Origin: Solibacillus sp. FSL H8-0523
GTDB taxonomy: Bacteria > Bacillota > Bacilli > Bacillales_A > Planococcaceae
NCBI RefSeq assembly: GCF_038051985.1
Contig: NZ_CP150291.1
Coordinates: 1,612,001 to 1,676,000, forward strand
Direction: 5' to 3'
Length of the DNA stretch: 64,000 nucleotides
Numbering within the stretch: position 1 is the first letter of the stretch; each line of letters starts with the position of its first letter. Of the stretch, positions 7,209-62,345 are shown in pieces. The translations under genes were made by a program, and so were the position numbers. The notes beneath the pieces were generated by a model. That model worked only from the letters and a program-made list of their open reading frames with translations, searched no databases and had not been told where the DNA came from.

Positions 7209-7242
7209 AAAAAAAAGAAGTTGAGAAATTAATCCCAACTTC
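7209..7242 (-). terminator. Terminator-like hairpin after the major tail gene
   Basis: Stem GAAGTTG/CAACTTC with an eight-T run on the minus strand. It probably lowers transcription from the abundant major tail gene into the chaperone and tape-measure genes. Confidence 0.7.
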
Positions 7243-7257
7243 TAAAAATTTATTTAT
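7243..7257 (-). repeat. AT-rich promoter-type element (copy after major tail gene)
   Basis: On the minus strand this reads ATAAATAAATTTTT, the same element found upstream of many promoters in this window. Here it is followed by the hairpin at 7209-7242 and no clear -10 lies at 45 or 56 bp, so function at this copy is uncertain. Confidence 0.5.
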
Positions 7258-7266
7258 GTTATTTAA

Positions 7267-11297: not shown

Positions 11298-11363
11298 AAT
11301 TTAAAATCCTCCTTGAAATCAATGAGGGCGAATCAACGCCCCCTTGTTTTGCTTTTATTTATT

Positions 11364-11379
11364 TTAAAAATTTACTTAT
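11364..11379 (-). repeat. AT-rich promoter-type element (copy after capsid gene)
   Basis: On the minus strand this reads ATAAGTAAATTTTT, matching the dispersed element. It lies 7 bases past the capsid stop. No -10 is seen 45 bp downstream. Confidence 0.5.
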
Positions 11380-11385
11380 ATAATA

Positions 11386-12357: not shown

Positions 12358-12396
12358 TTCCTAATTCCTCCTATATATTAAAAAAATTTATTTTTG

Positions 12397-12855
12397 TTAG
12401 ACAGTTAGTACACGTAATAAAGCCATATCACGTTGGTCATAATCAAACTTAGTTAATGCTTCAACCACGAAAGTAGTACGAGAATCTACATTTACTGAAT
12501 AACCATAATCAGCATTTCCTGTTACTACTGCGCCCACTACTGGAGCTGCCGTAAACATAGAGCGTTCAACTTGGAATTTATCTCCGACAGTAAGGTGATA
12601 AGCACGAGCTGCCTCGCCTGATTGAATAAAAATATCTAATTGATCTAAAGACTCATCAGCTTTCACTTCTGGAACGGCAACTAATAATAATTCTTTATCT
12701 TTAGCTGGCGCTACTGCGTTCATTAATTCACGCTCTCCAGCCACAGGTGTACCTAAAGCAACTAAAGAACCATTTAATAGTCCATTTGCAACTAGAACAG
12801 ATTCGATGTTACCGTTTGATTTCGCTTGCAGTTTATCTAAATTTACTTTTGTCAT
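12397..12855 (-). CDS. Head decoration or head-associated protein
   Basis: 152 aa from ATG 12855 with AGGAGGAAAAAAAT ahead of it. A longer frame starts at 12912, but its extra 19 residues would overlap the end of the upstream gene and lack a ribosome site. Ala/Val-rich and beta-rich. Small proteins between scaffold and capsid genes are often decoration proteins, hence the call. Confidence 0.7.
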   Translation of the reverse strand: MTKVNLDKLQAKSNGNIESVLVANGLLNGSLVALGTPVAGERELMNAVAPAKDKELLLVAVPEVKADESLDQLDIFIQSGEAARAYHLTVGDKFQVERSMFTAAPVVGAVVTGNADYGYSVNVDSRTTFVVEALTKFDYDQRDMALLRVLTV

Positions 12856-19508: not shown

Positions 19509-19563
19509 TTATATCATCCTGTATTATAAAATTTTACTTATGGGGCTTCGGTCGGTCTAGGCA

Positions 19564-23894: not shown

Positions 23895-23945
23895 ATTTTA
23901 CGAGGGTAAAAATATTTATCGGGGGATATTTAAAAATTTACTTAT
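23895..23945 (-). promoter_or_regulatory. Promoter of the shared class for the PhoH run
   Basis: Minus-strand element ATAAGTAAATTTTTAAAT starts at 23945; TAAAAT begins exactly 45 bp downstream (23900-23895). No TTGACA -35. Confidence 0.65.
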
Positions 23946-23946
23946 G

Positions 23947-24354
23947 TTAATGACTATTAAATTCATCTGTATCATGTAATCCAAGACTTATTTTTTCTTC
24001 AATACTTGAATCTGAAAAGTTAATGTATCGTGCTTTTTCGGCTACTTTTTTGTGTCCTTTAGTAGTCCATCGAACACCTTTATTCATTTCCATTTCATCA
24101 TTTTTTGAGAGTAACGCTTTATCGTGCTTGCCTCTTTGATTGGGCATCTTGCTGAGATAAAAACTAATTTTATCCATGATGTGTACTGTATTTAAATCGT
24201 TCCAAGTGTAGCGAAAGTATTCTTCAACAGTCATTTTCATATTGTCAAACACTAGCTCCGTCTTTAAAAAGTAATTAATTTCGGCTAATCTTTCTTCTGG
24301 CTCGATTAGATCGGAGAATAAAAATGACTCGCCATTTGAAAATTTCAATTTCAT
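23947..24354 (-). CDS. Hypothetical protein
   Basis: 135 aa, charged, AGAGGAG site before ATG 24354. No motif recognised. It shares the first transcript of the virion block with the sigma-like gene upstream. Confidence 0.65.
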   Translation of the reverse strand: MKLKFSNGESFLFSDLIEPEERLAEINYFLKTELVFDNMKMTVEEYFRYTWNDLNTVHIMDKISFYLSKMPNQRGKHDKALLSKNDEMEMNKGVRWTTKGHKKVAEKARYINFSDSSIEEKISLGLHDTDEFNSH

Positions 24355-24396: not shown

Positions 24397-24954
24397 TTAC
24401 CTACGTTTTTCCGTGTGAACGCTGTTTTCGCATTTACGACAGTAGGATTTGCAACCATCTTTGTTTCGCGCGTCTTGGCCGAAAAACTCATCAATTGCGG
24501 GGAATTTATTTTTACATTTGGAGCAATCCTTTAGTTTTAGGTTAAGCGTATGGTGATAAATCGTCATTCGCCAGTTCCATAAATTTTGTTTTACGATTTC
24601 TTTGCAAATAGTATTAAGGCGCTTCCGAATGTTTTCATTTGATTTTAAACCTAGTTTTTCTGCAATTTCTTTATAGCTGTAACCGTGCTCATAGAGCTTA
24701 ATGATTTGCAATTGAGATTCATTAAAAGCACATTGATTAATAATTTGGTCTAACGATGCATAAGTAGATAATAGCTCGGTATTTATACCTTGTACTTCTC
24801 CAGCTACATCATACGTATTGTTCATTTCACTATATAAATAGTTGTCGTATTTATATCTAAACTCAATTAAGAGGCGTACTACATTAATATCTGAAAACGT
24901 GAGGTTTTTATAAAAAAGCCCTTTACTTTCTAAGTCAATTTTAACGCTGCCCAA
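24397..24954 (-). CDS. Sigma-region-4-like regulator with C-terminal zinc ribbon
   Basis: 185 aa from TTG 24954, six bases after GGAGG. The middle (about residues 75-130) is a helix-turn-helix with YSYKEIAEKLGL, as in sigma-70 region 4 and late regulators. The C-terminus has two CxxC pairs (CSKC...CRKC) around an FFGQDARNKDG segment, a zinc-ribbon form common in phage HTH proteins. As the first gene of the leftward virion block, it is a candidate late-gene activator. Confidence 0.75.
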   Translation of the reverse strand: MGSVKIDLESKGLFYKNLTFSDINVVRLLIEFRYKYDNYLYSEMNNTYDVAGEVQGINTELLSTYASLDQIINQCAFNESQLQIIKLYEHGYSYKEIAEKLGLKSNENIRKRLNTICKEIVKQNLWNWRMTIYHHTLNLKLKDCSKCKNKFPAIDEFFGQDARNKDGCKSYCRKCENSVHTEKRR

Positions 24955-25180
24955 TTCAAAACCTCCATGTAACACTAGCGACTTGTTGTGCGGGGAACTA
25001 CTTAATAATGCGGGGGGGAGGAAACTATTATATTTCCTATACTTTTATTATCTTCTTAAAATTGAGATTTTTAAACAGTAAAAAAAAATAAATTTTTATT
25101 TATGTTAATAAAAATAAAAAATTGAAATATAACCGACATTAAGTTGTTTAGCGTTGTATTTTAAACAAAGGGGTTATTTG
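24955..25180. promoter_or_regulatory. Divergent promoter region between virion block and helicase
   Basis: The AT-rich element occurs in both orientations here (plus at 25084, minus at 25103). On the plus strand TATAAC starts at 25128, 44 bp from the element, and the helicase ribosome site follows. On the minus strand TATAAT at 25032-25027 and a TATAGG at 25041 are possible -10s but not at the usual spacing. Confidence 0.6.
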
Positions 25181-28745: not shown

Positions 28746-28970
28746 TGTCTAAACGATTTTTAGGTGGCGCGAAGCCAGTCGTATCAAGGGTTTGAGACGT
28801 TTTTTGGGATTTTTCTTTTTTTAAGCGTTCGCAAAAAACTATGCGTTTACCAAAAATGGCCTGTCACCAGTTTTACCGATTTTTGAATCAAATAAGCACA
28901 TAGAGGAGAGTGAGGAACACAGATGAAAGTATTACGGTAGCCGAAGGTTTTTATGAGGTAGAAGAATAAT

Positions 28971-29038
28971 ATAAATAAATTTTCAAAATAACGCTTCAAA
29001 ATAGCTTGTACTCAATTTTAGCTCTAGCATGATATATT
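28971..29038 (+). promoter_or_regulatory. Promoter-class element with distant -10
   Basis: ATAAATAAATTTT at 28971; the best -10 is TATATT at 29033, 62 bp away, longer than other copies. Confidence 0.35.
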
Positions 29039-33875: not shown

Positions 33876-33984
33876 AGTAAGAAAACTACTCACAAAAGTA
33901 ATTTATTACAATAAAACATAAAGGGCGGGGCGGTCTTATCTACAATTATGCCCCCCTTCAATATTTTGAGAAGGAGTAATTAAA

Positions 33985-37774: not shown

Positions 37775-37824
37775 AATATATACGCTGGACACTAGTCCTA
37801 TTCAAATTATAAAAATTTACTTAT
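37775..37824 (-). promoter_or_regulatory. Promoter of the shared class
   Basis: Minus-strand ATAAGTAAATTTTTATAAT at 37824; GTATATATTAT follows with TATATT at 37780, 44 bp away. Drives the two genes to its left. Confidence 0.6.
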
Positions 37825-37857
37825 ATGAACGCTGGCAGTTCTCCCCAAAAAATCAAA

Positions 37858-38777: not shown

Positions 38778-38826
38778 GATATACACATAAAACTTTAATT
38801 ATTCCGTATTTTAAAAATTTACTCAT
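38778..38826 (-). promoter_or_regulatory. Promoter of the shared class (radC run)
   Basis: Minus-strand ATGAGTAAATTTTTAAAAT at 38826; GTATATCC with TATATC at 38783, 43 bp away. Confidence 0.55.
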
Positions 38827-38841
38827 GTTGTGTGAAATAAA

Positions 38842-39636: not shown

Positions 39637-39687
39637 ATTATATGCTACTAAAACGTTCAATATTCCTATTTATAAAAATTTACTTTT
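39637..39687 (-). promoter_or_regulatory. Promoter of the shared class
   Basis: Minus-strand AAAAGTAAATTTTTATAAAT at 39687; TATAAT starts exactly 45 bp downstream at 39642. Confidence 0.7.
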
Positions 39688-39764
39688 GTCGTAGCTGGAT
39701 TGGCTGTGTAAAATTACGCCTGACTAGATGCTAAAAAAAGATGCTGCTTTATCGGCCGACTATT

Positions 39765-43399: not shown

Positions 43400-44551
43400 T
43401 TAATAAGTACGTACTGGTAAAATCAAATGTAGCGCCTTATCATCTAATGGATTAACAAGCGTGAAGGGGTGCTTTGAACCATTAAAATTCAATGTTACGA
43501 TTTTACAATCTAAAGCTTTTAATGCATCCGTAAAATAATTTGAACTAAATGAACACAAAATTTCTTCGCCTGTGCGTGAGCTAACTAACAATTCAGCGGT
43601 CATTTTTCCTAATTCGGGACTGTCTGAATTAAGTGTTGTTTGATTTTCTGTACTGTTAAAGCGTATAACGTTGTTACGGTCATGTTTCGCAATAATTGAA
43701 AGTGTGCTAGTAGCTTCGAGTAATTCGTCAGAATAAAGATTAATTGTTGATTTAAAGTTATCTGGGATTAATCGGCTAATATCTGGGTAATTACCTTCCA
43801 AATTACGCAACCAATATTCCATATCATCAAATTTGATTAACGTGTATTTATGATTAAAACCGATTACTACTGTTTTTGTTGCCTTGCTAATCATTTTAGA
43901 AATTTTAATAAGTGAAGCGTGGGGCACTGTAATTTGATAAGCTAATTGATCGCGTTCTTGATTTTTATAATTTTTAAGAGTATAAAGCGCTAAACGGTGA
44001 GAATCTGTTGCAACAAAGCGTAAATGCTTTTGTGTATCGTAATCAATATGAACACCTGTCAACACGGGGCGACTTTCTGAAGTAGCACACGCGAAAACTG
44101 TATTTTTCATAACGGTTTTAAAATCGTTAACGTCCATTTCTAAATAATCAAATTCAATATTCGGCATAAGAGGGTATTCACTTGCATCTGAAGCAACCAC
44201 TTCAAATTTTATTGTGTCTGCTTTTATGGAAATCTTGTCTTTTTGTGCTGTATCAAATTCAATCAAATCGGCTTTCGATTTTTTTAGAAAATCGTTCAAA
44301 TACTTATAACTAAAAATAAATGATGCTTTATCAGTAAAGTAGCTATTTTGAAAAGATGTTACTGCGATTGTATCGCCGTTAGTTGCCGTAATTGTTGTTT
44401 GGCTTTCTGTAACATCGAATTTTACAGTTTGATAAATTGGAACTTGGATTTTACCGTCAATCGCTAGGGACAATTTTTTTAATGCCTCGACTAAACTTTT
44501 ACGAGTAATAACCGTAACATTACTTGTTTTTTTTAATGAACCATTTACCAT
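43400..44551 (-). CDS. dnaN: DNA polymerase III beta sliding clamp
   Basis: 383 aa, standard length for DnaN, AAAGGAG site. Three-domain pattern with RPVLTGVHI, ATDSHRLA, and a C-terminal LILPVRTY that matches the end of Firmicute clamps. A phage-encoded clamp could recruit host PolC/DnaE and other clamp-binding proteins to its own DNA. Transcribed with a 139-aa gene from the promoter at 45008-45067. Confidence 0.95.
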   Translation of the reverse strand: MVNGSLKKTSNVTVITRKSLVEALKKLSLAIDGKIQVPIYQTVKFDVTESQTTITATNGDTIAVTSFQNSYFTDKASFIFSYKYLNDFLKKSKADLIEFDTAQKDKISIKADTIKFEVVASDASEYPLMPNIEFDYLEMDVNDFKTVMKNTVFACATSESRPVLTGVHIDYDTQKHLRFVATDSHRLALYTLKNYKNQERDQLAYQITVPHASLIKISKMISKATKTVVIGFNHKYTLIKFDDMEYWLRNLEGNYPDISRLIPDNFKSTINLYSDELLEATSTLSIIAKHDRNNVIRFNSTENQTTLNSDSPELGKMTAELLVSSRTGEEILCSFSSNYFTDALKALDCKIVTLNFNGSKHPFTLVNPLDDKALHLILPVRTY

Positions 44552-44972: not shown

Positions 44973-45007
44973 CCGTAACCTCCATTAAAATTATTTATTA
45001 ATAGCAA

Positions 45008-45067
45008 TATATACAAAATCCCATCCTTCTATACGTGAGAAAGATGGAATTTTAAAAATTTACTTAT
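45008..45067 (-). promoter_or_regulatory. Promoter of the shared class for the dnaN run
   Basis: Minus-strand ATAAGTAAATTTTTAAAAT at 45067 overlaps the stop of the upstream gene; GTATATATT has TATATT at 45013, 54 bp away. Confidence 0.6.
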
Positions 45068-45488
45068 GTTGAAAATAAATTTCTTCTAAGTCGAATTCGT
45101 GTGGAATATACATATCGGCTAAATCTTCAAAAGCTGTATTTTCAATGGTTTCATAAATTTGTTGTAATTCTTCTTCTCGATATTCATCACTAAAATGCGT
45201 TTGCCAATAATCAATTAGCCAATTTTGAGATTGTTTTAATGTAACTATACACACTGTAGAATTACCGTTTAAATCATTAAGAACGTATAATTTTTCTACT
45301 GGCTCACCAATTAATAATTTTTTTAAATTTATCATGTTCGCGATTTTAATGACTTTACTGTCCTCAAGTATACACTTTGAGGTACTTGATATTTCAAAAA
45401 GGTTATCTATATAAAAATCGAAACTTTCACCAATTAAAGAAACCTGTAAATCATCTAATTCAAAAGAACGTTTACTTAATTTTTCCAT
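45060..45488 (-). CDS. Hypothetical protein
   Basis: 142 aa from ATG 45488, two bases after the previous stop; a start at 45509 would overlap. Acidic, no motif. Its last codons are part of the promoter element. Confidence 0.6.
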   Translation of the reverse strand: MEKLSKRSFELDDLQVSLIGESFDFYIDNLFEISSTSKCILEDSKVIKIANMINLKKLLIGEPVEKLYVLNDLNGNSTVCIVTLKQSQNWLIDYWQTHFSDEYREEELQQIYETIENTAFEDLADMYIPHEFDLEEIYFQHK

Positions 45489-46088: not shown

Positions 46089-46139
46089 AATATATACAAA
46101 TTAAATAAGACATATACGGTATTTTAAAAATTTGTTAAT
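46089..46139 (-). promoter_or_regulatory. Promoter of the shared class
   Basis: Minus-strand ATTAACAAATTTTTAAAAT at 46139; GTATATATTAATT has TATATT starting 45 bp downstream at 46094. Confidence 0.6.
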
Positions 46140-46251
46140 GAAAAAACCATTATCGAAACAGCAGCAGCTATTCAAAAATCAAATGAAAAAATCATTTGAT
46201 CAAAAACTTAAAACTCAAAAAGAGGGGAACAAAAATTGTTTCATTTCCTTT

Positions 46252-47640: not shown

Positions 47641-47691
47641 AGTATAGTTATCTGTTTTTATATATATACGCGTTCGTAAAAATTTATTTAT
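47641..47691 (-). promoter_or_regulatory. Promoter of the shared class for ardA
   Basis: Minus-strand ATAAATAAATTTTTACG at 47691 overlapping the stop of the upstream gene; TATACT starts exactly 45 bp downstream at 47646. Confidence 0.7.
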
Positions 47692-47869
47692 GTCGTGATT
47701 TTTTAATGAGGAATCGTGTTTCTTCCATTGTATCTAAGTTTACAGTAGCTTTGTAAATTCCTTCTATTGCAAGTACTTCTATATAAGTCATTAAATTGTT
47801 TCTAACTGTATACTCGATAATTCCGTACTTTTCGGCGTACTGCAATGCTTTTGATTCGTAATTATCCAT
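47684..47869 (-). CDS. Small hypothetical protein
   Basis: 61 aa, AAAGGAGG site. Mixed, no motif. Its final codons overlap the ardA promoter element. Confidence 0.6.
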   Translation of the reverse strand: MDNYESKALQYAEKYGIIEYTVRNNLMTYIEVLAIEGIYKATVNLDTMEETRFLIKKSRHK

Positions 47870-48240: not shown

Positions 48241-48259
48241 GTGGCTTTTCAAATTAATA

Positions 48260-48310
48260 TAAATAAATTTATAAATTTACTGAATAAGAAATAATGATTT
48301 GCGTATAATA
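48260..48310 (+). promoter_or_regulatory. Promoter of the shared class
   Basis: ATAAATAAATTTATAAAT at 48260; TATAAT at 48305, exactly 45 bp. Confidence 0.7.
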
Positions 48311-48635: not shown

Positions 48636-48684
48636 TAAAATGTTGATTTTAGAAAGGGGAGCGACAATTCTGTTTTAAAATAAC

Positions 48685-48735
48685 ATAAGTAAATTTTCAT
48701 TAAACCGTATAGCTATTGTCGTATTTGCATATAAT
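48685..48735 (+). promoter_or_regulatory. Promoter of the shared class
   Basis: ATAAGTAAATTTTCATT at 48685; TATAAT at 48730, exactly 45 bp. A TATAACGGCAA copy at 48741 lies at the predicted start point. Confidence 0.7.
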
Positions 48736-49578: not shown

Positions 49579-49614
49579 ATAAAAAATAAACCAACAGCAT
49601 GTAGCCTATTGGTT
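49579..49614 (-). terminator. Terminator of the FtsK-like gene
   Basis: Stem AACCAA/TTGGTT with TATTTTTT tail on the minus strand, overlapping the stop codon. Confidence 0.75.
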
Positions 49615-51900
49615 TTTTGAAATCCACTCATTCAATTTTGCTTCATTAATTTTATAGCCCTCTTGTTTCGTTCTTCCAATTTCTAAAAATCCTTCTGCAA
49701 CTAATTTCTTCATCAAATCCGTTAGTTTTAAATTTTTAATACCCATATATCTTCTTAATTCAGTTGATCTAGTTTCTTTAGTATCAGCAATAATTTGTTT
49801 TAATTTATACAAGCTTTCATCTTCGTTATCACCTTCATTTTGTTCTGAAACAGTTTCCGTTTTTTCATCTTTCGATGTAGTAGAATATGCATATTGCTTA
49901 TTTAAATATTTAGCTAAACTTTGATAAACTTGAAACTCGATTTTTTCATCTGGTGAGAGGATTGGACTTTGAAATCTTTGAAACTCTTTGCCCCATCCTT
50001 CAATTTTCATTACACCGTCACCATTGCCAAGTAAGGTGTAGGGAATTCCAGTGCCAAAAACTGTCTTATAATTATTTGAATTACTTAAATTGAATGAAAT
50101 TGCATTCGGCACATTTGCTTTTATTTTACCGCTAATTATATTTGATGATGGTCTTTGAGTACACAGAACTAAATGAATGCCTGCTGCTCTTGATTTTTGT
50201 GTAAGACGAGCAACATAATTTTCAATTTCGGGATTGGTGTCTTTCAAATCTGCATACTCGTCAATGATGCAAACAATATAGGGCATAATTTCAGTATCTT
50301 TCAATTCTTTATTTTGCACTTTGTCATTGTACAAGCTGATATTTTTTACACCTACATCTTTAAAAATGGTGTATCTTTTATCCATTTGTTTTGTCAATTC
50401 ATCCAACAATTCCTCAACCCTATCCATTTCAGATACTAGCTCTTGAACATGAGGGAAGTCTTCATAATGTTGGAATTCCACCATTTTTGGATCAATCATA
50501 ATCATCTGTAGCTCTTTTGGAGAATTAGTAAGCATTAATGTTATAGCCATTTGATTGATGAATACGGATTTACCACTTCCAGTTGTACCCGTTACTAATA
50601 AATGTGGTAACTTTGCCAGCGATAAATTGATTGGTTCATTTATTTCATTTACACCCACAACAAACGACAATTTATTTTTCTTACTAAATTCTTTAAAAGG
50701 TTCTACTTCTAACAATGCCCGTAAACCAACAATAGTTTGCTGCTCATTTGGAATTAACATTCTGACCGTATCTGCTGCATCTCCTTGTTCGATGCTTAAA
50801 TTAGTTACGCCTAGTGCTGCTCGAATGTCTGTTTGTTTTTTCGTTATATCTGTTAAATTTTTATCTTTCGGTATATCAAATTGCAGGACTGTTAAACGAA
50901 TACCCGTTGTCACGATTGCATTGTATACTCTTGCTTGATTAGTTATTCCTACTCGCTTCAGCGCTTCTTCGACAGCGTGTGTTAATCCTTCTCTCGATGA
51001 CACTTTTTGCAAAGGGTAATCTGGTAAAAGTTCAATTACATTTTTCACAAATTGAAATTCATTTTGATTAGAAGTATCAATTATTTTTTCTTCAATTATA
51101 AAACCATTATTTCCACCAAACAAAGATAAAATTTCTTGAACGGATAGTATTTGATATTTAGTGTCGGGAGTCATAACACAATTATTTATTTGTTGCTGTA
51201 GATTTTTCCCTTTCACCTTCGATATTTTAATAGCATTGAAATAAGTATACTGATTAAACAAACCTTCTAAACTACTGATTATTTGTTTTCGTCTTTCCGT
51301 TGATGAATCTATAATAATATTTAGTTTGAAACAATAGCCTTCACTAATAATCTTCTGTTCTGCTTCATTTATATAGTCTCTAACTTCTGAGGACGTTCCA
51401 AATCTCCTCATTAAATGTATCATTCTATCTTGAATCCTACGGCCAAAGCTTGATGTGAGCGGTTGGTCATTGCCTAAAATGTAACTTGAGTACATTTGAA
51501 TTGCTTTGTCTTGCCAGTTATAAGATGCTTTTTTAAATAACCATTGTATGAAAATGGATTCATGATCGTTCAAAATAAAAGCAAGCGATTGCAACCTCTT
51601 AATCAATTCACCATCAAAATCCGTGCATAGCGGTAAAAAGAACGGCTCATATAAATAACCTTCATATACACTAGCTACTGCCATTAATTGATTCTGGTTG
51701 GAACTTTTCAATTTTCCATTTCTTTTAATAAAAGAAGGAGAAACCAATGTGAAATTAGTTGCCCCTTTATTCGCCATTACCTCAATGCCAAAAACACCAT
51801 CTCTTGATTGCTCAATAATTTGCTTGAAATCATTACTTATATTAATCACATTTGTTTTGGTGTATAAGTTCGTTAAATTACAAGAATTTAAACTTTTCAC
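49606..51900 (-). CDS. FtsK/SpoIIIE-family DNA translocase
   Basis: 764 aa from GTG 51900 (AGGAGTGTTAAG). The N-terminal ~390 residues lack membrane helices and have no known match. The motor has Walker A VTGTTGSGKS at about residue 441 and Walker B CIIDEYADL, with LCTQRPSS after it. The C-terminus has a winged helix (about residues 700-755) like the FtsK gamma domain, which reads DNA orientation signals. Membrane contact may come from the upstream-encoded membrane proteins. It could pump plasmid DNA during division, transfer or sporulation. It could also be a coupling protein of a transfer system; no relaxase is visible. Confidence 0.9.
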   Translation of the reverse strand: MKSLNSCNLTNLYTKTNVINISNDFKQIIEQSRDGVFGIEVMANKGATNFTLVSPSFIKRNGKLKSSNQNQLMAVASVYEGYLYEPFFLPLCTDFDGELIKRLQSLAFILNDHESIFIQWLFKKASYNWQDKAIQMYSSYILGNDQPLTSSFGRRIQDRMIHLMRRFGTSSEVRDYINEAEQKIISEGYCFKLNIIIDSSTERRKQIISSLEGLFNQYTYFNAIKISKVKGKNLQQQINNCVMTPDTKYQILSVQEILSLFGGNNGFIIEEKIIDTSNQNEFQFVKNVIELLPDYPLQKVSSREGLTHAVEEALKRVGITNQARVYNAIVTTGIRLTVLQFDIPKDKNLTDITKKQTDIRAALGVTNLSIEQGDAADTVRMLIPNEQQTIVGLRALLEVEPFKEFSKKNKLSFVVGVNEINEPINLSLAKLPHLLVTGTTGSGKSVFINQMAITLMLTNSPKELQMIMIDPKMVEFQHYEDFPHVQELVSEMDRVEELLDELTKQMDKRYTIFKDVGVKNISLYNDKVQNKELKDTEIMPYIVCIIDEYADLKDTNPEIENYVARLTQKSRAAGIHLVLCTQRPSSNIISGKIKANVPNAISFNLSNSNNYKTVFGTGIPYTLLGNGDGVMKIEGWGKEFQRFQSPILSPDEKIEFQVYQSLAKYLNKQYAYSTTSKDEKTETVSEQNEGDNEDESLYKLKQIIADTKETRSTELRRYMGIKNLKLTDLMKKLVAEGFLEIGRTKQEGYKINEAKLNEWISKNQ

Positions 51901-55819: not shown

Positions 55820-56128
55820 TCAAAACCTTTTAGCATCAAAACTCAAGCGATTATTTTTATGTTGTATTGGTGTAGGGGGGGGATCTTCTACAATTGGAGC
55901 AGAGGCAGCAGGAACATGAGCAGGAGGAGCGTGTGCAAATTTTGAAAGCGTCTCGTCTAATAGCCGTTTGATGCGCATATCTAATTTTTCATTTTCCCTT
56001 TGCTGCATGTATGAGCGCATAGCAATTTTAAATAGCGTTGCGTTTGGTGTATCAGTTGCATTTAAAAATTCTTCAATATCCTTATCAGCTTTTGTAATCG
56101 TAATTTCAATGCGTGGATTCTTCTTCAA
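55820..56128 (-). CDS. parR: ParR-like centromere-binding protein
   Basis: 102 aa. The N-terminus (RIEITITKADKDIEEFL..TDTPNATLFKIAM) fits a ribbon-helix-helix protein; the tail is Pro/Ala-rich and flexible with a basic end, as in ParR proteins that contact ParM. Its start lies inside the end of parM (23-base overlap), so they are coupled. Confidence 0.85.
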   Translation of the reverse strand: MKKNPRIEITITKADKDIEEFLNATDTPNATLFKIAMRSYMQQRENEKLDMRIKRLLDETLSKFAHAPPAHVPAASAPIVEDPPPTPIQHKNNRLSFDAKRF

Positions 56129-57179
56129 TACCAGTCACTCCATTTGCTAGACCATATTTATAAAATCCTCGTACATTCGCTGTTTCACTTCCGATAACAA
56201 ACCAAGCAATCGGTATAACACGTTTGAATTCCTCTTTAATCAGTAAATTAGCAGTTCCACCTGTTACATAGACAACTTTCATTTTAGCGATTGATTTTAG
56301 TGTAGTTTTAACCGCAGTAGCAATTTTTCGTGTATATCGCTTTCGTTCCCTCATTACAATTTCCGTTAAATCTAAAAAATCACGTTTGTTTGGACTCCAT
56401 TGATACTGTTCAGAAACGCTATTTTGACGTAGTAAACGTTCCACTTCATAATCTGTTATCTTATGGCCGAGTAGTGTTACAGCGTTACGTATAGCGCTAT
56501 AAAGCGCATGTGCGCCTTCTTCTAGTTGTAAGCGATTATTTGTATCTAAATTCATATTATTAAAGGCATCAACGATTACTGTTCCACCGCCAGCATCTAC
56601 TATACCAATGTAATTATCTTCAATGTCGTTATCATCTATGATGTTTCCAAATTCATTTACCATTGCATCAATTGCTGTTCCAGTCGTTTGAGTAAGTACA
56701 TAAACATGTTTTACTAAAATGTTGTATTCTGTATCATCAATAAAGACTGTATGTTTACCTTTGAGTGATGTTTGCACTTTAGCGACAATTTCATTTTGTT
56801 CATATTCAATAGAAGGAATGCCAGTAATCACAACTACTTCAAGTTCACCATTCGTTGCTTGTTTAAAATCACGGGCCATTTCCGCTAAAGCAAAATCAGT
56901 AAGCAATAAAAATTCTAATGAGTCATAGCGATCTGTAAATGCAATTGTATCTGTAATGTGTCGATTGCTTATATCAAGCTTTTTTCCCCAGACGTAAGTA
57001 AAATCCATATCAAGTGATGAAACGTAGTCTGATGTGTTTTCTTCATTTTTAGCAAAATTTAAAATACTACGATTACCGTATTCGTTTGAATCAATAAAGT
57101 AAGATGGGTAAACTTTAATTCCTTTTTCTGACAGCATCTTCACCTGACGATTGCCTAGTTCTAATGCAAATAATTTCAA
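56106..57179 (-). CDS. parM: ParM/StbA-type actin-like ATPase
   Basis: 357 aa, TTG 57179 after GGAGG. Actin-fold motifs: phosphate-1 ELGNRQVK, phosphate-2 IVDAGGGT and adenosine motif VYVTGGTA. It polymerises to push plasmid copies apart with ParR bound at a centromere. Repeats in its promoter region fit that centromere. This gene implies low-copy extrachromosomal maintenance. Confidence 0.93.
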   Translation of the reverse strand: MKLFALELGNRQVKMLSEKGIKVYPSYFIDSNEYGNRSILNFAKNEENTSDYVSSLDMDFTYVWGKKLDISNRHITDTIAFTDRYDSLEFLLLTDFALAEMARDFKQATNGELEVVVITGIPSIEYEQNEIVAKVQTSLKGKHTVFIDDTEYNILVKHVYVLTQTTGTAIDAMVNEFGNIIDDNDIEDNYIGIVDAGGGTVIVDAFNNMNLDTNNRLQLEEGAHALYSAIRNAVTLLGHKITDYEVERLLRQNSVSEQYQWSPNKRDFLDLTEIVMRERKRYTRKIATAVKTTLKSIAKMKVVYVTGGTANLLIKEEFKRVIPIAWFVIGSETANVRGFYKYGLANGVTGIEEESTH

Positions 57180-57292: not shown

Positions 57293-57325
57293 ATATAATG
57301 GAAGAAGGTAGTACTTTCATTTTAC

Positions 57326-57376
57326 ATAAATAAATTTTTGAAATATTGTATACATTTAAATTGTAATACGTATACT
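57326..57376 (+). promoter_or_regulatory. Promoter of the shared class
   Basis: ATAAATAAATTTTTGAAAT at 57326; TATACT at 57371, exactly 45 bp. Confidence 0.7.
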
Positions 57377-59345: not shown

Positions 59346-59355
59346 GATTTTTGAC

Positions 59356-59417
59356 ATAAATTAATTTTTGAAATTTACGTCACATTTAGAATAAGGTGGT
59401 GTTTTTTTGCGTATACT
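59356..59417 (+). promoter_or_regulatory. Promoter of the shared class
   Basis: ATAAATTAATTTTTGAAAT at 59356; GTATACT with TATACT at 59412, 56 bp away, about one turn more than the 45-bp copies. Confidence 0.6.
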
Positions 59418-60254: not shown

Positions 60255-60274
60255 GATGATATGAGAATAACAAC

Positions 60275-60337
60275 ATAAATAAATTTTTAAAATAAGCGTC
60301 ACAAATAAGTATAAAGTGGCGCTTACTTCCGTATACT
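60275..60337 (+). promoter_or_regulatory. Promoter of the shared class
   Basis: ATAAATAAATTTTTAAAAT at 60275; GTATACT with TATACT at 60332, 57 bp away. Confidence 0.6.
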
Positions 60338-61041: not shown

Positions 61042-62235
61042 TCATTTAATTTTATCGTTAGCAGCCTCTTGTTCGTCTTGCAATACATCTTCTAAAGCTA
61101 CTTTTAACGCTGTATAGACAGCAATTACGCCACCTTCGCCGTGGCCGCCAAATTGTAGAGAACCAGATGGAGACTCCATACCACCAAAACTAGACCAATA
61201 TAAAACGTCTTGATGCCAATTTACTTTTTTGATTGCTTGATAAATATGTTCATCTTTTATCGTTAAATCGTTTTGAGCTTCATAGATAAAACGACAAATA
61301 CCTCTAAATGCAAAACCTTTAGCAGTAACATATTTATTTTTTTCATGAAGATCTTGCGGTAACGCTTTAAACATTTTATCCATCGTAGAAGTAACACGTT
61401 TTTTTGTGTTATTGTAATTTTTTTCTGTTAGGAATTCGTTGTTTACTTTCAATTCATTGTGATACAAACCGCGACAGAAATTATAGACGGAAGTTAATAA
61501 AATGGTATTCGGGTTGACAGAATGAATAGACATTTTGTGATATTCTACTCCATACTTTAATAAGTAATGGTTTTCTTCCGAAACTTCACGAGCCAATTTG
61601 CTGAATAAGTCATTTTGAGATAAACGGATTGTCGATGAGCGGCTAGGTCTAGTAGCCAACGAGTTTAGATCGAAAAATAATTGTTTCTCATCATCTTCTG
61701 AAATGCTGTTAAATAGAACAACAGGAATAACCATCTCATTTAATTCATTAAGATGACGTTCGTAAAGTTCATGCTGTTCTTTAGAGCGAGCTTTCGATAT
61801 TTTTTTCTTTAATTCATCTATTGTAGCTAGAATTCCGTAGTAACGATGTTGCCCGTCATTGATTGAGAGTTTAGATGAAACTGTATCAATGGCAACTGTT
61901 TTAGTGTTGTAGTCATAGAATACATTTCCTCTTGCCGTAACTGTTATGCCAGGGAAAAATCTCAAATTTGTTTTATCTTCAAGATAAGATAAAATATAAG
62001 TTTTTATTTGTGTGATTTTTCGGGCACTAGTAGTACGTTGAACTTCTGGAAAAACTCTTAAAAACTTTGCTAAGTCTTTAAATTGTAAGACAGCAGAAAA
62101 CACTTCTCTTCCGAATTGTTGCCCCTTGATTGCAGCAATAGTCGCGTACTGATTTATAGTTAATTCAGTATTTGCTTTAATAATTCCTTCTGTTTCAAGA
62201 GAGCCAGGCTTTTGATATAGTTCTTTTTGAGTCAT
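61042..62235 (-). CDS. DGQHR-domain (DndB-like) protein
   Basis: 397 aa from ATG 62235 (AAAGGGG). The hallmark SINDGQHRYYGI lies at about residue 125. DndB-type proteins regulate or support DNA phosphorothioation, and DGQHR proteins also occur in other DNA-modification loci. No dndA/C/D/E partners are visible. A lone copy on a phage might interfere with the host system or serve an unknown process. Confidence 0.88.
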   Translation of the reverse strand: MTQKELYQKPGSLETEGIIKANTELTINQYATIAAIKGQQFGREVFSAVLQFKDLAKFLRVFPEVQRTTSARKITQIKTYILSYLEDKTNLRFFPGITVTARGNVFYDYNTKTVAIDTVSSKLSINDGQHRYYGILATIDELKKKISKARSKEQHELYERHLNELNEMVIPVVLFNSISEDDEKQLFFDLNSLATRPSRSSTIRLSQNDLFSKLAREVSEENHYLLKYGVEYHKMSIHSVNPNTILLTSVYNFCRGLYHNELKVNNEFLTEKNYNNTKKRVTSTMDKMFKALPQDLHEKNKYVTAKGFAFRGICRFIYEAQNDLTIKDEHIYQAIKKVNWHQDVLYWSSFGGMESPSGSLQFGGHGEGGVIAVYTALKVALEDVLQDEQEAANDKIK

Positions 62236-62345
62236 ATTAATTCCCCTTTTGCTATTTTTTGTATATTGTAGCATAAACAAAGAAATAACTACAATGATTT
62301 TATGTTTTTAATTTTAATATTCTAATAATTGATTTATCTGAAACA

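What the first reader, a model, noticed from the sequence alone, without database searches (positions are those of the whole stretch)
47641..47691. A shared promoter architecture: AT-rich element at fixed distance from a TATAAT-like -10, no -35
ATAARTAAATTTTT(N)AAAT is followed by a -10 hexamer starting exactly 45 bp on at 23945(-), 39687(-), 46139(-), 47691(-), 48260(+), 48685(+) and 57326(+), 43-44 bp at 25084(+), 37824(-) and 38826(-), and 54-57 bp at 45067(-), 47965(-), 59356(+) and 60275(+). A degenerate 62346(+) copy is also at 45. The two main classes differ by about one helical turn, and no TTGACA lies between. It sits upstream of genes on both strands in most accessory modules, often overlapping the previous stop codon. 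I infer a phage-specific activator or UP-type element that co-controls many operons.
Basis: partly seen in the sequence, partly recalled or inferred. Interest (0 to 1): 0.85.

Follow-up and report, generated by a model that had tools for sequence, protein, structure and literature searches.

The report
Dispersed repressor sites in an SPβ-like prophage
A dormant virus of about 130,000 bases in this bacterial chromosome carries some fifty copies of one short AT-rich DNA sign, nearly all pointing in the direction of gene reading, that are most likely landing sites for its master 'stay asleep' protein; several related viruses carry a sign of the same kind with different letters.

Summary
The element is a 22-bp asymmetric site (ACATAARTAAATTTTTAWAATA), found 51 times in a ~130-kb SPβ-like prophage, 26 times in the window, mostly between genes (38 of 51) and oriented with transcription. 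'No -35' is wrong: ten promoters carry G(T/A)ATAN 16-17 bp before the -10, starting 1-3 bp (seven) or 13-14 bp (three) after the element. Many other copies lack a promoter and lie at a stop codon, before a terminator-like hairpin, or before a ribosome site. The prophage encodes a homologue of MrpR, SPβ's master repressor. Six relatives carry a many-copy motif of this kind (G054's nearly the same); in phi3T, whose MrpR is divergent, its motif stands exactly where SPβ has SPBRE at three places. Most likely it is the operator of the MrpR homologue, used beside promoters and, stoperator-like, at gene ends. Binding is not shown, the letters do not resemble SPBRE (p = 0.71), and one SPβ promoter (yosX) holds both motif types. 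An UP element alone is not supported.

The parts
37805..37826 (-). element copy; promoter GAATAG-N17-TATATT at 37775-37803
   Evidence: PWM 25.5; promoter
38807..38828 (-). element copy; -10 TATATC about 45 bp from its start
   Evidence: PWM 29.0; sequence
39668..39689 (-). element copy; promoter GAATAT-N17-TATAAT at 39637-39665
   Evidence: PWM 24.5
45048..45069 (-). element copy overlapping the upstream stop; hairpin-like sequence (by eye), then promoter GTATAG-N17-TATATT at 45006-45034 (long-spacing class)
   Evidence: PWM 29.1
46120..46141 (-). weaker element copy; promoter GTATAT-N17-TATATT at 46089-46117
   Evidence: below the threshold
47672..47693 (-). element copy (the finding's own site), overlapping the upstream stop; promoter GTATAT-N17-TATACT at 47641-47669
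   Evidence: PWM 21.6
48257..48278 (+). element copy; promoter GAATAA-N16-TATAAT at 48282-48309
   Evidence: PWM 18.0
48683..48704 (+). element copy; promoter GTATAG-N17-TATAAT at 48707-48735
   Evidence: PWM 23.2
57324..57345 (+). element copy; promoter GTATAC-N17-TATACT at 57348-57376
   Evidence: PWM 27.1
59354..59375 (+). element copy; terminator-like hairpin (by eye), then promoter GAATAA-N17-TATACT at 59389-59417 (long class)
   Evidence: PWM 21.1
60273..60294 (+). element copy; promoter GTATAA-N17-TATACT at 60309-60337 (long class)
   Evidence: PWM 29.5
   Evidence: PWM 22.0
   Evidence: PWM 19.0
7238..7259 (-). element copy 7 bp after a stop codon, directly before a terminator-like hairpin and T-run (by eye)
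   Evidence: PWM 23.8
11360..11381 (-). element copy 4 bp after a stop codon, late operon
   Evidence: PWM 27.4
12376..12397 (-). element copy touching a stop codon, 18 bp before the next start, no room for a downstream promoter
   Evidence: PWM 21.6
19522..19543 (-). element copy in a late-operon gene gap
   Evidence: PWM 22.0
23926..23947 (-). element copy touching a stop codon upstream of the PhoH gene; weak -10 only
   Evidence: PWM 24.3
28969..28990 (+). element copy in an intergenic stretch
   Evidence: PWM 24.5
33892..33913 (+). element copy 16 bp after a stop codon
   Evidence: PWM 21.0
62318..62339 (-). element copy upstream of the DndB-like gene 61042-62280
   Evidence: PWM 19.7

Best explanation
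The element is the operator of the prophage's MrpR-family repressor (YopR homologue, genome coordinates 1680072-1681097, just right of the window): the functional counterpart, with different letters, of the SPβ repeated element SPBRE. Beside promoters it lies right against the -35 box (47-bp class) or about one helical turn further away (58-59-bp class), so that bound repressor would hinder initiation at early and accessory promoters. Elsewhere it sits at gene ends, before terminator-like hairpins or before ribosome sites, oriented with transcription, where bound repressor would act as an oriented roadblock, like a stoperator, and silence read-through in the lysogen. Shown here: copy number, orientation, placement, recurrence in relatives, the MrpR membership of the protein, and a different motif at the exact place of SPBRE at three sites of phi3T. 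Inferred: binding by MrpR, repression, and the roadblock action.
For: MrpR homologue: Pfam MrpR_N_CB and MrpR_C_cat at 64.6 and 64.8 bits (cut-off 27), solved MrpR 8a0a at 4.7e-35, next to YopP and YopQ homologues as in SPβ. 51 oriented, mostly intergenic sites; orientation agrees with block transcription in 49 of 54 here and in 13 of 14, 82 of 86, 62 of 67 and 47 of 49 own-motif sites of SPBc2, E3, phi6255 and Perkons. A relative whose MrpR is 55% identical has nearly the same motif (60 hits in 160 kb, 0 in shuffles). In each of the seven genomes with an own matrix, that matrix gives the most hits. phi3T MrpR is 30% identical to SPBc2's; phi3T has 4 SPBRE-matrix hits against 13 in SPBc2 and 16 in Goe12; its 31-copy motif lies at the predicted SPBRE position at yonO (0 bp off), spbT (-4) and the second yosX site (-4), with 78-98% identical downstream sequence. 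MrpR binds at SPBRE (ten ChAP-seq peaks, spbT and yosX among them, yonO not) and lowers PaimR and PyosX five-fold (PMC10516654, passages). An excess of -10 boxes at a like spacing is seen in phi3T, SPBc2, phi6255 and E3.
Against: The motif does not resemble SPBRE (column-permutation p = 0.71; 0-1 SPBRE hits here). SPBRE often overlaps the promoter core, whereas here the site lies upstream of it. SPBc2, Goe12, SPR and SPbetaL2 also hold 6-9 phi3T-type copies, and at yosX both types stand in one promoter, so they might be sites of two proteins. Of 31 phi3T sites, 3 replace an SPBRE exactly (two of these SPBREs are weak, 24-25 bits), 4 are 20-41 bp off, 10 are 270 bp or more off, 14 do not align. 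The ten GWATA promoters look weak and might need activation. In G145, with a 35% identical MrpR, no motif of this type emerged in 100 kb. G054 and Perkons show no clear excess at 47 bp by the -10 score.
Confidence: 0.55

Rival explanations
1. The element binds a lytic or lysogenic activator (or the MrpR homologue acting as one), which compensates for the poor GWATA -35 box of the accessory promoters; gene-end copies are remnants or serve unseen promoters.
For: Ten promoters with a non-TTGACA -35 sit against or about one turn from the element; in the SPβ yosX promoter a phi3T-type motif stands upstream of the -35 while SPBRE overlaps the -10.
Against: Several downstream promoters in G054, phi3T and SPBc2 have sigma-A-like -35 boxes (by eye; combined score); 13 of 38 intergenic copies are 5-40 bp from a start codon; the copy at 1588318 follows the last called minus-strand gene, with only plus-strand genes called beyond it.
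Confidence: 0.16
2. The element is itself a phage-specific promoter (late-sigma or phage-polymerase type) just before ribosome sites.
For: 13 of 38 intergenic copies end 5-40 bp before a start codon; the core recalls the T4 late and yeast mitochondrial promoters (recalled, not tested); a sigma region-4-like protein is encoded at 24397-24975(-).
Against: Copies directly before terminator-like hairpins and at the end of the late operon; the motif occurs in early and late modules alike; no YonO homologue by tblastn.
Confidence: 0.11
3. The element is a core site of a tyrosine recombinase (the YopP homologue) that shuffles gene cassettes.
For: Gene-end position; left arm like a XerD arm (recalled); the extra gene 1689815-1690174 between the yorK and yorL homologues is flanked by two copies; 8 of 32 phi3T/SPBc2 segment ends lie within 40 bp of the phi3T-type motif (random 3.1%).
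Against: In SPβ relatives cassette edges track another palindrome found with YomM, both missing here; 13 of 51 copies are inside genes; copies are oriented with transcription and some stand at fixed distances from promoters. Breaks near phi3T-type sites may only reflect that the operators differ.
Confidence: 0.1
4. An UP-type element contacted by the RNA polymerase alpha subunit.
For: In the 47-bp class it covers about -59 to -38 and is AT-rich.
Against: The long class and the promoterless copies; conservation over 22 bp including non-A/T positions; different motifs in different phages.
Confidence: 0.04

Closest known systems
SPβ repeated element (SPBRE) bound by MrpR (YopR), Bacillus phage SPβ
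   Same: Many sites in one prophage, oriented, at promoters and before ribosome sites; a repressor with the same Pfam domains in the same yopP-yopQ-yopR context; at PaimR, PyonX and PspbT SPBRE also lies upstream with the -10 at 52, 51 and 41 bp (my reading of sequences).
   Different: Letters not detectably similar (p = 0.71); 51 sites against 14 for SPBRE in SPBc2; many at gene ends; at the promoters seen here it does not overlap the -10.
Stoperators of mycobacteriophage L5 (recalled; no paper read)
   Same: Many asymmetric sites oriented with transcription, often at gene ends, in a prophage.
   Different: L5 uses a shorter site and a helix-turn-helix repressor (recalled); here the candidate binder is of tyrosine-recombinase fold, and elongation block is untested.
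UP element
   Same: AT-rich and just upstream of the -35 in one class.
   Different: A specific 22-bp sequence; many copies without a promoter.

Membership tests
MrpR repressor family (the protein) | MrpR_N_CB and MrpR_C_cat domains | tested here: met
   64.6 and 64.8 bits against a cut-off of 27; solved MrpR at 4.7e-35
MrpR repressor family (the protein) | Position behind yopP and yopQ homologues | tested here: met
SPBRE / MrpR operator (the site) | Sequence of SPBRE | tested here: not met
   0-1 hits here; permutation p = 0.71
SPBRE / MrpR operator (the site) | Bound by MrpR | not testable with these tools
   needs gel shift or ChAP-seq
SPBRE / MrpR operator (the site) | Placed at phage promoters, oriented with the gene | tested here: met
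   for ten promoters and for orientation in general
SPBRE / MrpR operator (the site) | Motif changes with repressor type at orthologous places | tested here: inconclusive
   three exact replacements among 31 phi3T sites, but mixed copies in SPBc2
Stoperator | Dispersed, asymmetric, oriented with transcription, often near gene ends | tested here: met
   18 of 38 intergenic copies have a stop codon at -12 to +25 bp; 12 of 13 in-gene copies are sense
Stoperator | Bound repressor blocks elongation | not testable with these tools
   needs reporters
UP element | Function tied to a promoter at -38 to -59 | tested here: not met
   at least 38 of 54 sites have no -10-like hit at 46-50 bp

The most novel reading that the evidence does not exclude
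SPβ-like giant prophages run a repressor-specific, genome-wide silencing code: each immunity type has its own oriented operator in 14-88 copies, placed both against promoters and at gene ends, so that one recombinase-fold repressor blocks initiation and elongation across 130 kb, and the operator sequence is replaced wholesale when the repressor changes.
Probability: 0.38. Interest if true: 0.75.

Novelty: new variant of a known kind. Interest (0 to 1): 0.55.

Why it matters
SPβ-like prophages are kept silent by a repressor that evolved from a recombinase, and SPβ itself has only about fourteen known-type sites for 130 kb. This relative carries about fifty oriented sites, many away from promoters, and six relatives carry a motif of the same kind. 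If true, stoperator-like silencing by a recombinase-fold repressor, and co-evolution of repressor and operator, become directly testable in the laboratory phages SPβ and phi3T.

Tried and rejected
An SPBRE scan of the prophage: 0-1 sites, and the two motif matrices do not resemble each other. A promoter or late-polymerase reading: weakened by copies before terminator-like hairpins; no YonO homologue by tblastn. A cassette-recombination reading of this element: pursued through SPβ relatives; the breakpoint signal there belongs to another palindrome (TAAAA-N6-TTTTA) that is not enriched here (3 against control 5), though phi3T-type sites also lie near breakpoints (8 of 32). Close relatives of this prophage: two genome-contig scans gave no related locus, a viral-contig scan with the FtsK-like protein gave one distant locus (27%), and an exact motif scan of viral contigs gave one 11.9-kb contig, not followed up. 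G149, G156 and G131 (MrpR about 30% identical) gave 0-1 hits to the three matrices tried in 100 kb each; in G131 the de novo search was swamped by an unrelated repeat; G149 and G156 were not searched de novo. G029 gave 1 match in 100 kb. The other nine genomes with a match were not examined.

Full report
What the window is. The window is G000:C1:1612001-1676000. It is the middle of a prophage of about 130 kb (roughly 1585.5-1715 kb; limits estimated from G+C, gene content and a serine-integrase gene at 1712980-1714587). tblastn of its ORFs against SPBc2 (NC_001884) gives ordered matches: terminase 52%, DNA polymerase 51%, and YopP, YopQ and YopR (MrpR) homologues at 26, 30 and 30%. It is SPβ-like but distant. 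Megablast of window 40000-64000 found nothing among 50,697 phage records.

The element. From eight seeds an iterated 22-bp matrix gave 51 sites at a threshold set to 0.5 expected in order-2 Markov sequence; the matrix was trained on the same sites, so counts near the threshold are soft. A separate 34-bp matrix against order-3 shuffles gave 54. 38 of 51 are outside genes, although only 15.6% of 22-bp positions are; of 13 in-gene sites 12 are sense. Genes were called by my own script, not by a standard caller. For 36 of 38 intergenic copies the next gene is on the same strand; the two exceptions (1588318 and 1695922) follow a same-strand gene and face an opposing one. 18 of 38 have the upstream stop codon at -12 to +25 bp, 13 of 38 a start codon 5-40 bp downstream, 7 both. 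By eye, several are followed directly by terminator-like hairpins (window 7238 and 59354; genome 1588318, 1684709, 1690240; sequences); this was not counted against a control. Of the 26 window copies the parts list gives the 20 outside genes, plus 46120; the six inside genes start at 12831, 13348, 15498, 27072, 29739 and 47490.

The promoter architecture. With a simple -10 score, 8 of 54 sites have a hit at exactly 47 bp from the element's first base (0.80 per position at 70-149 bp), 16 hits fall within 46-50 (4.0 expected), and 5 at 58. Ten promoters have GWATAN 16-17 bp before TATAHT; seven boxes start 23-25 bp and three 35-36 bp after the element start, i.e. 1-3 or 13-14 bp after its end. 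For the own motifs of other phages (each in its own register) there is an excess in phi3T (9 against 2.6 at 45-49), SPBc2 (5 against 0.9 at 48-52), phi6255 (19 against 7.4 at 44-48) and E3 (19 against 8.9 at 45-49, though 29-33 holds more, 22). In G054 the fullest windows start at 24-29, and 47 and 57-58 stand out little by this score (4, 5 and 4), although 8 of 32 strong promoters there lie at 57-58; Perkons shows no clear peak at 47. Windows were chosen as the best of many, so these counts are descriptive.

Relatives. G054, another genus of the family with a 55% identical MrpR, has 60 hits to the window's matrix in 160 kb and 0 in shuffles. Searches for dispersed motifs found an AT-rich motif in phi3T, E3, phi6255 and Perkons and, as SPBRE, in SPBc2. 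Counts: G054 88, phi3T 31, SPBc2 14, E3 86, phi6255 67, Perkons 49. Cross-scanning gives a mostly diagonal table: in each of seven genomes the own matrix gives the most hits. Exceptions to a clean diagonal are ours and G054 (40 and 56 across), G054 and phi6255 scanned with the E3 matrix (22 and 28), the 6-9 phi3T-type copies of the SPβ group, and 8-12 in a few other cells. G145, G149, G156, G131 and G029 showed no comparable signal in 100 kb each; G145 gave 4 hits to our matrix and 3 to SPBRE's. Orientation agrees with the transcription block in 49 of 54 (ours), 13 of 14 (SPBc2), 82 of 86 (E3), 62 of 67 (phi6255) and 47 of 49 (Perkons); blocks were set by hand from the annotation. Three of the four E3 exceptions lie around a minus-strand gene at 478-2649, and two of the five of phi6255 lie before a minus-strand gene, so they are in truth concordant.

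Why MrpR. In SPβ, ChAP-seq gave ten MrpR peaks at SPBRE sites, a 15-bp motif, and five-fold lower PaimR and PyosX activity (PMC10516654: abstract, outline and passages seen). phi3T, whose MrpR is 30% identical to SPβ's, has 4 SPBRE hits against 13 in SPBc2. Of its 31 own-motif sites, three stand at the aligned SPBRE position: yonO (0 bp), spbT (-4) and the second yosX site (-4). Four are 20-41 bp off (two at yonP, one each at yosX and yopV), ten are 270 bp or more away, and 14 do not align. spbT and yosX are among the published ChAP targets; the yonO site is not, and the SPBREs at yonO and the second yosX site are weak matches (24-25 bits). SPBc2, Goe12, SPR and SPbetaL2 also hold 6-9 phi3T-type copies, one of them together with SPBRE in the yosX promoter. 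Some lie in segments 94-100% identical to phi3T (nrdI, mtbP, yoqN) and may have come with exchanged genes; this is inference. The element's matrix does not resemble SPBRE (p = 0.71), so the link rests on the protein, the placement and the replacement, not on the letters. On rechecking, the weak yonO case made me lower my confidence slightly.

Verdict. The best reading is an operator system of the MrpR kind with an unusually large number of oriented sites, many of them stoperator-like. Binding and effect are untested. Literature: the search for SPBRE listed three papers, one unrelated (PMC4191935 seen only as listing and abstract start). Of 288 papers with two of the words stoperator, Bacillus and SPβ, 15 were listed; none of these held 'stoperator', and since papers with more terms come first, none held all three. 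The search for MrpR or phi3T from 2024 on listed 20 of 942; its three phi3T papers were seen as abstract starts only and not read. In the SPβ review PMC8270828 the word YopR does not occur (12 of 13 passages seen). The YonO paper PMC5467207 (passages) leaves the late promoter sequence open.

Noticed in passing
SPBc2 and relatives (L016-L018 and others); not enriched in this prophage: A second palindrome, TYTnAATAAAA-N6-TTTTATTnARA, often at gene ends, is many times above control in SPβ-like phages with the tyrosine recombinase YomM (82% identical between SPβ and E3). 123 of 406 segment ends from nine pairwise phage comparisons (not independent) lie within 40 bp of it (random 2.9%); of 109 plus-strand SPBc2 gene ends, 11 of 16 with it are breakpoints against 27 of 93 without (p = 0.0037). 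Candidate cassette-shuffling site. G054 has the palindrome (27 against control 2) without a YomM match in 160 kb, but with another recombinase gene. The one paper found with YomM and recombinase is unrelated; a phage-integron paper does not mention Bacillus (passages).
   Followed up: partly
window 37775-60337: Ten promoters with an unusual -35 box G(T/A)ATAN 16-17 bp before TATAHT; what reads this box is unknown.
   Followed up: partly
window 24397-24975 (-): A 192-aa protein resembling sigma-factor region 4 (phrog_5767, 6.5e-16; Pfam below cut-off); E3 has a sigma factor beside its PhoH gene and SPβ has YonO. Perhaps the late regulator.
   Followed up: partly
L012:391-1380 (+): A 330-aa RNPP-family regulator (PF18768) just before the yopP-yopQ-yopR homologues, reminiscent of the arbitrium receptor AimR.
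   Followed up: no
L012:1791-1840 (+): An element copy followed 4 bp on by TTTGAC and then TATAAT, inside the yopP homologue; a possible internal promoter for the repressor genes.
   Followed up: no
L013:16414-16435 (+): One of the strongest copies (score 28.2) lies inside a gene that reads like a dihydrofolate reductase (reading by eye).
   Followed up: no
window 43400-44551, 49606-51900, 56106-57179: The prophage carries a DNA polymerase sliding clamp, an FtsK/SpoIIIE-like protein and an actin-like Alp7A/ParM-type segregation protein.
   Followed up: no
prophage, exact places not mapped: A repeated A-rich pattern with AAAATCAAAA periodicity came up in the motif search of this prophage (28 instances).
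   Followed up: no
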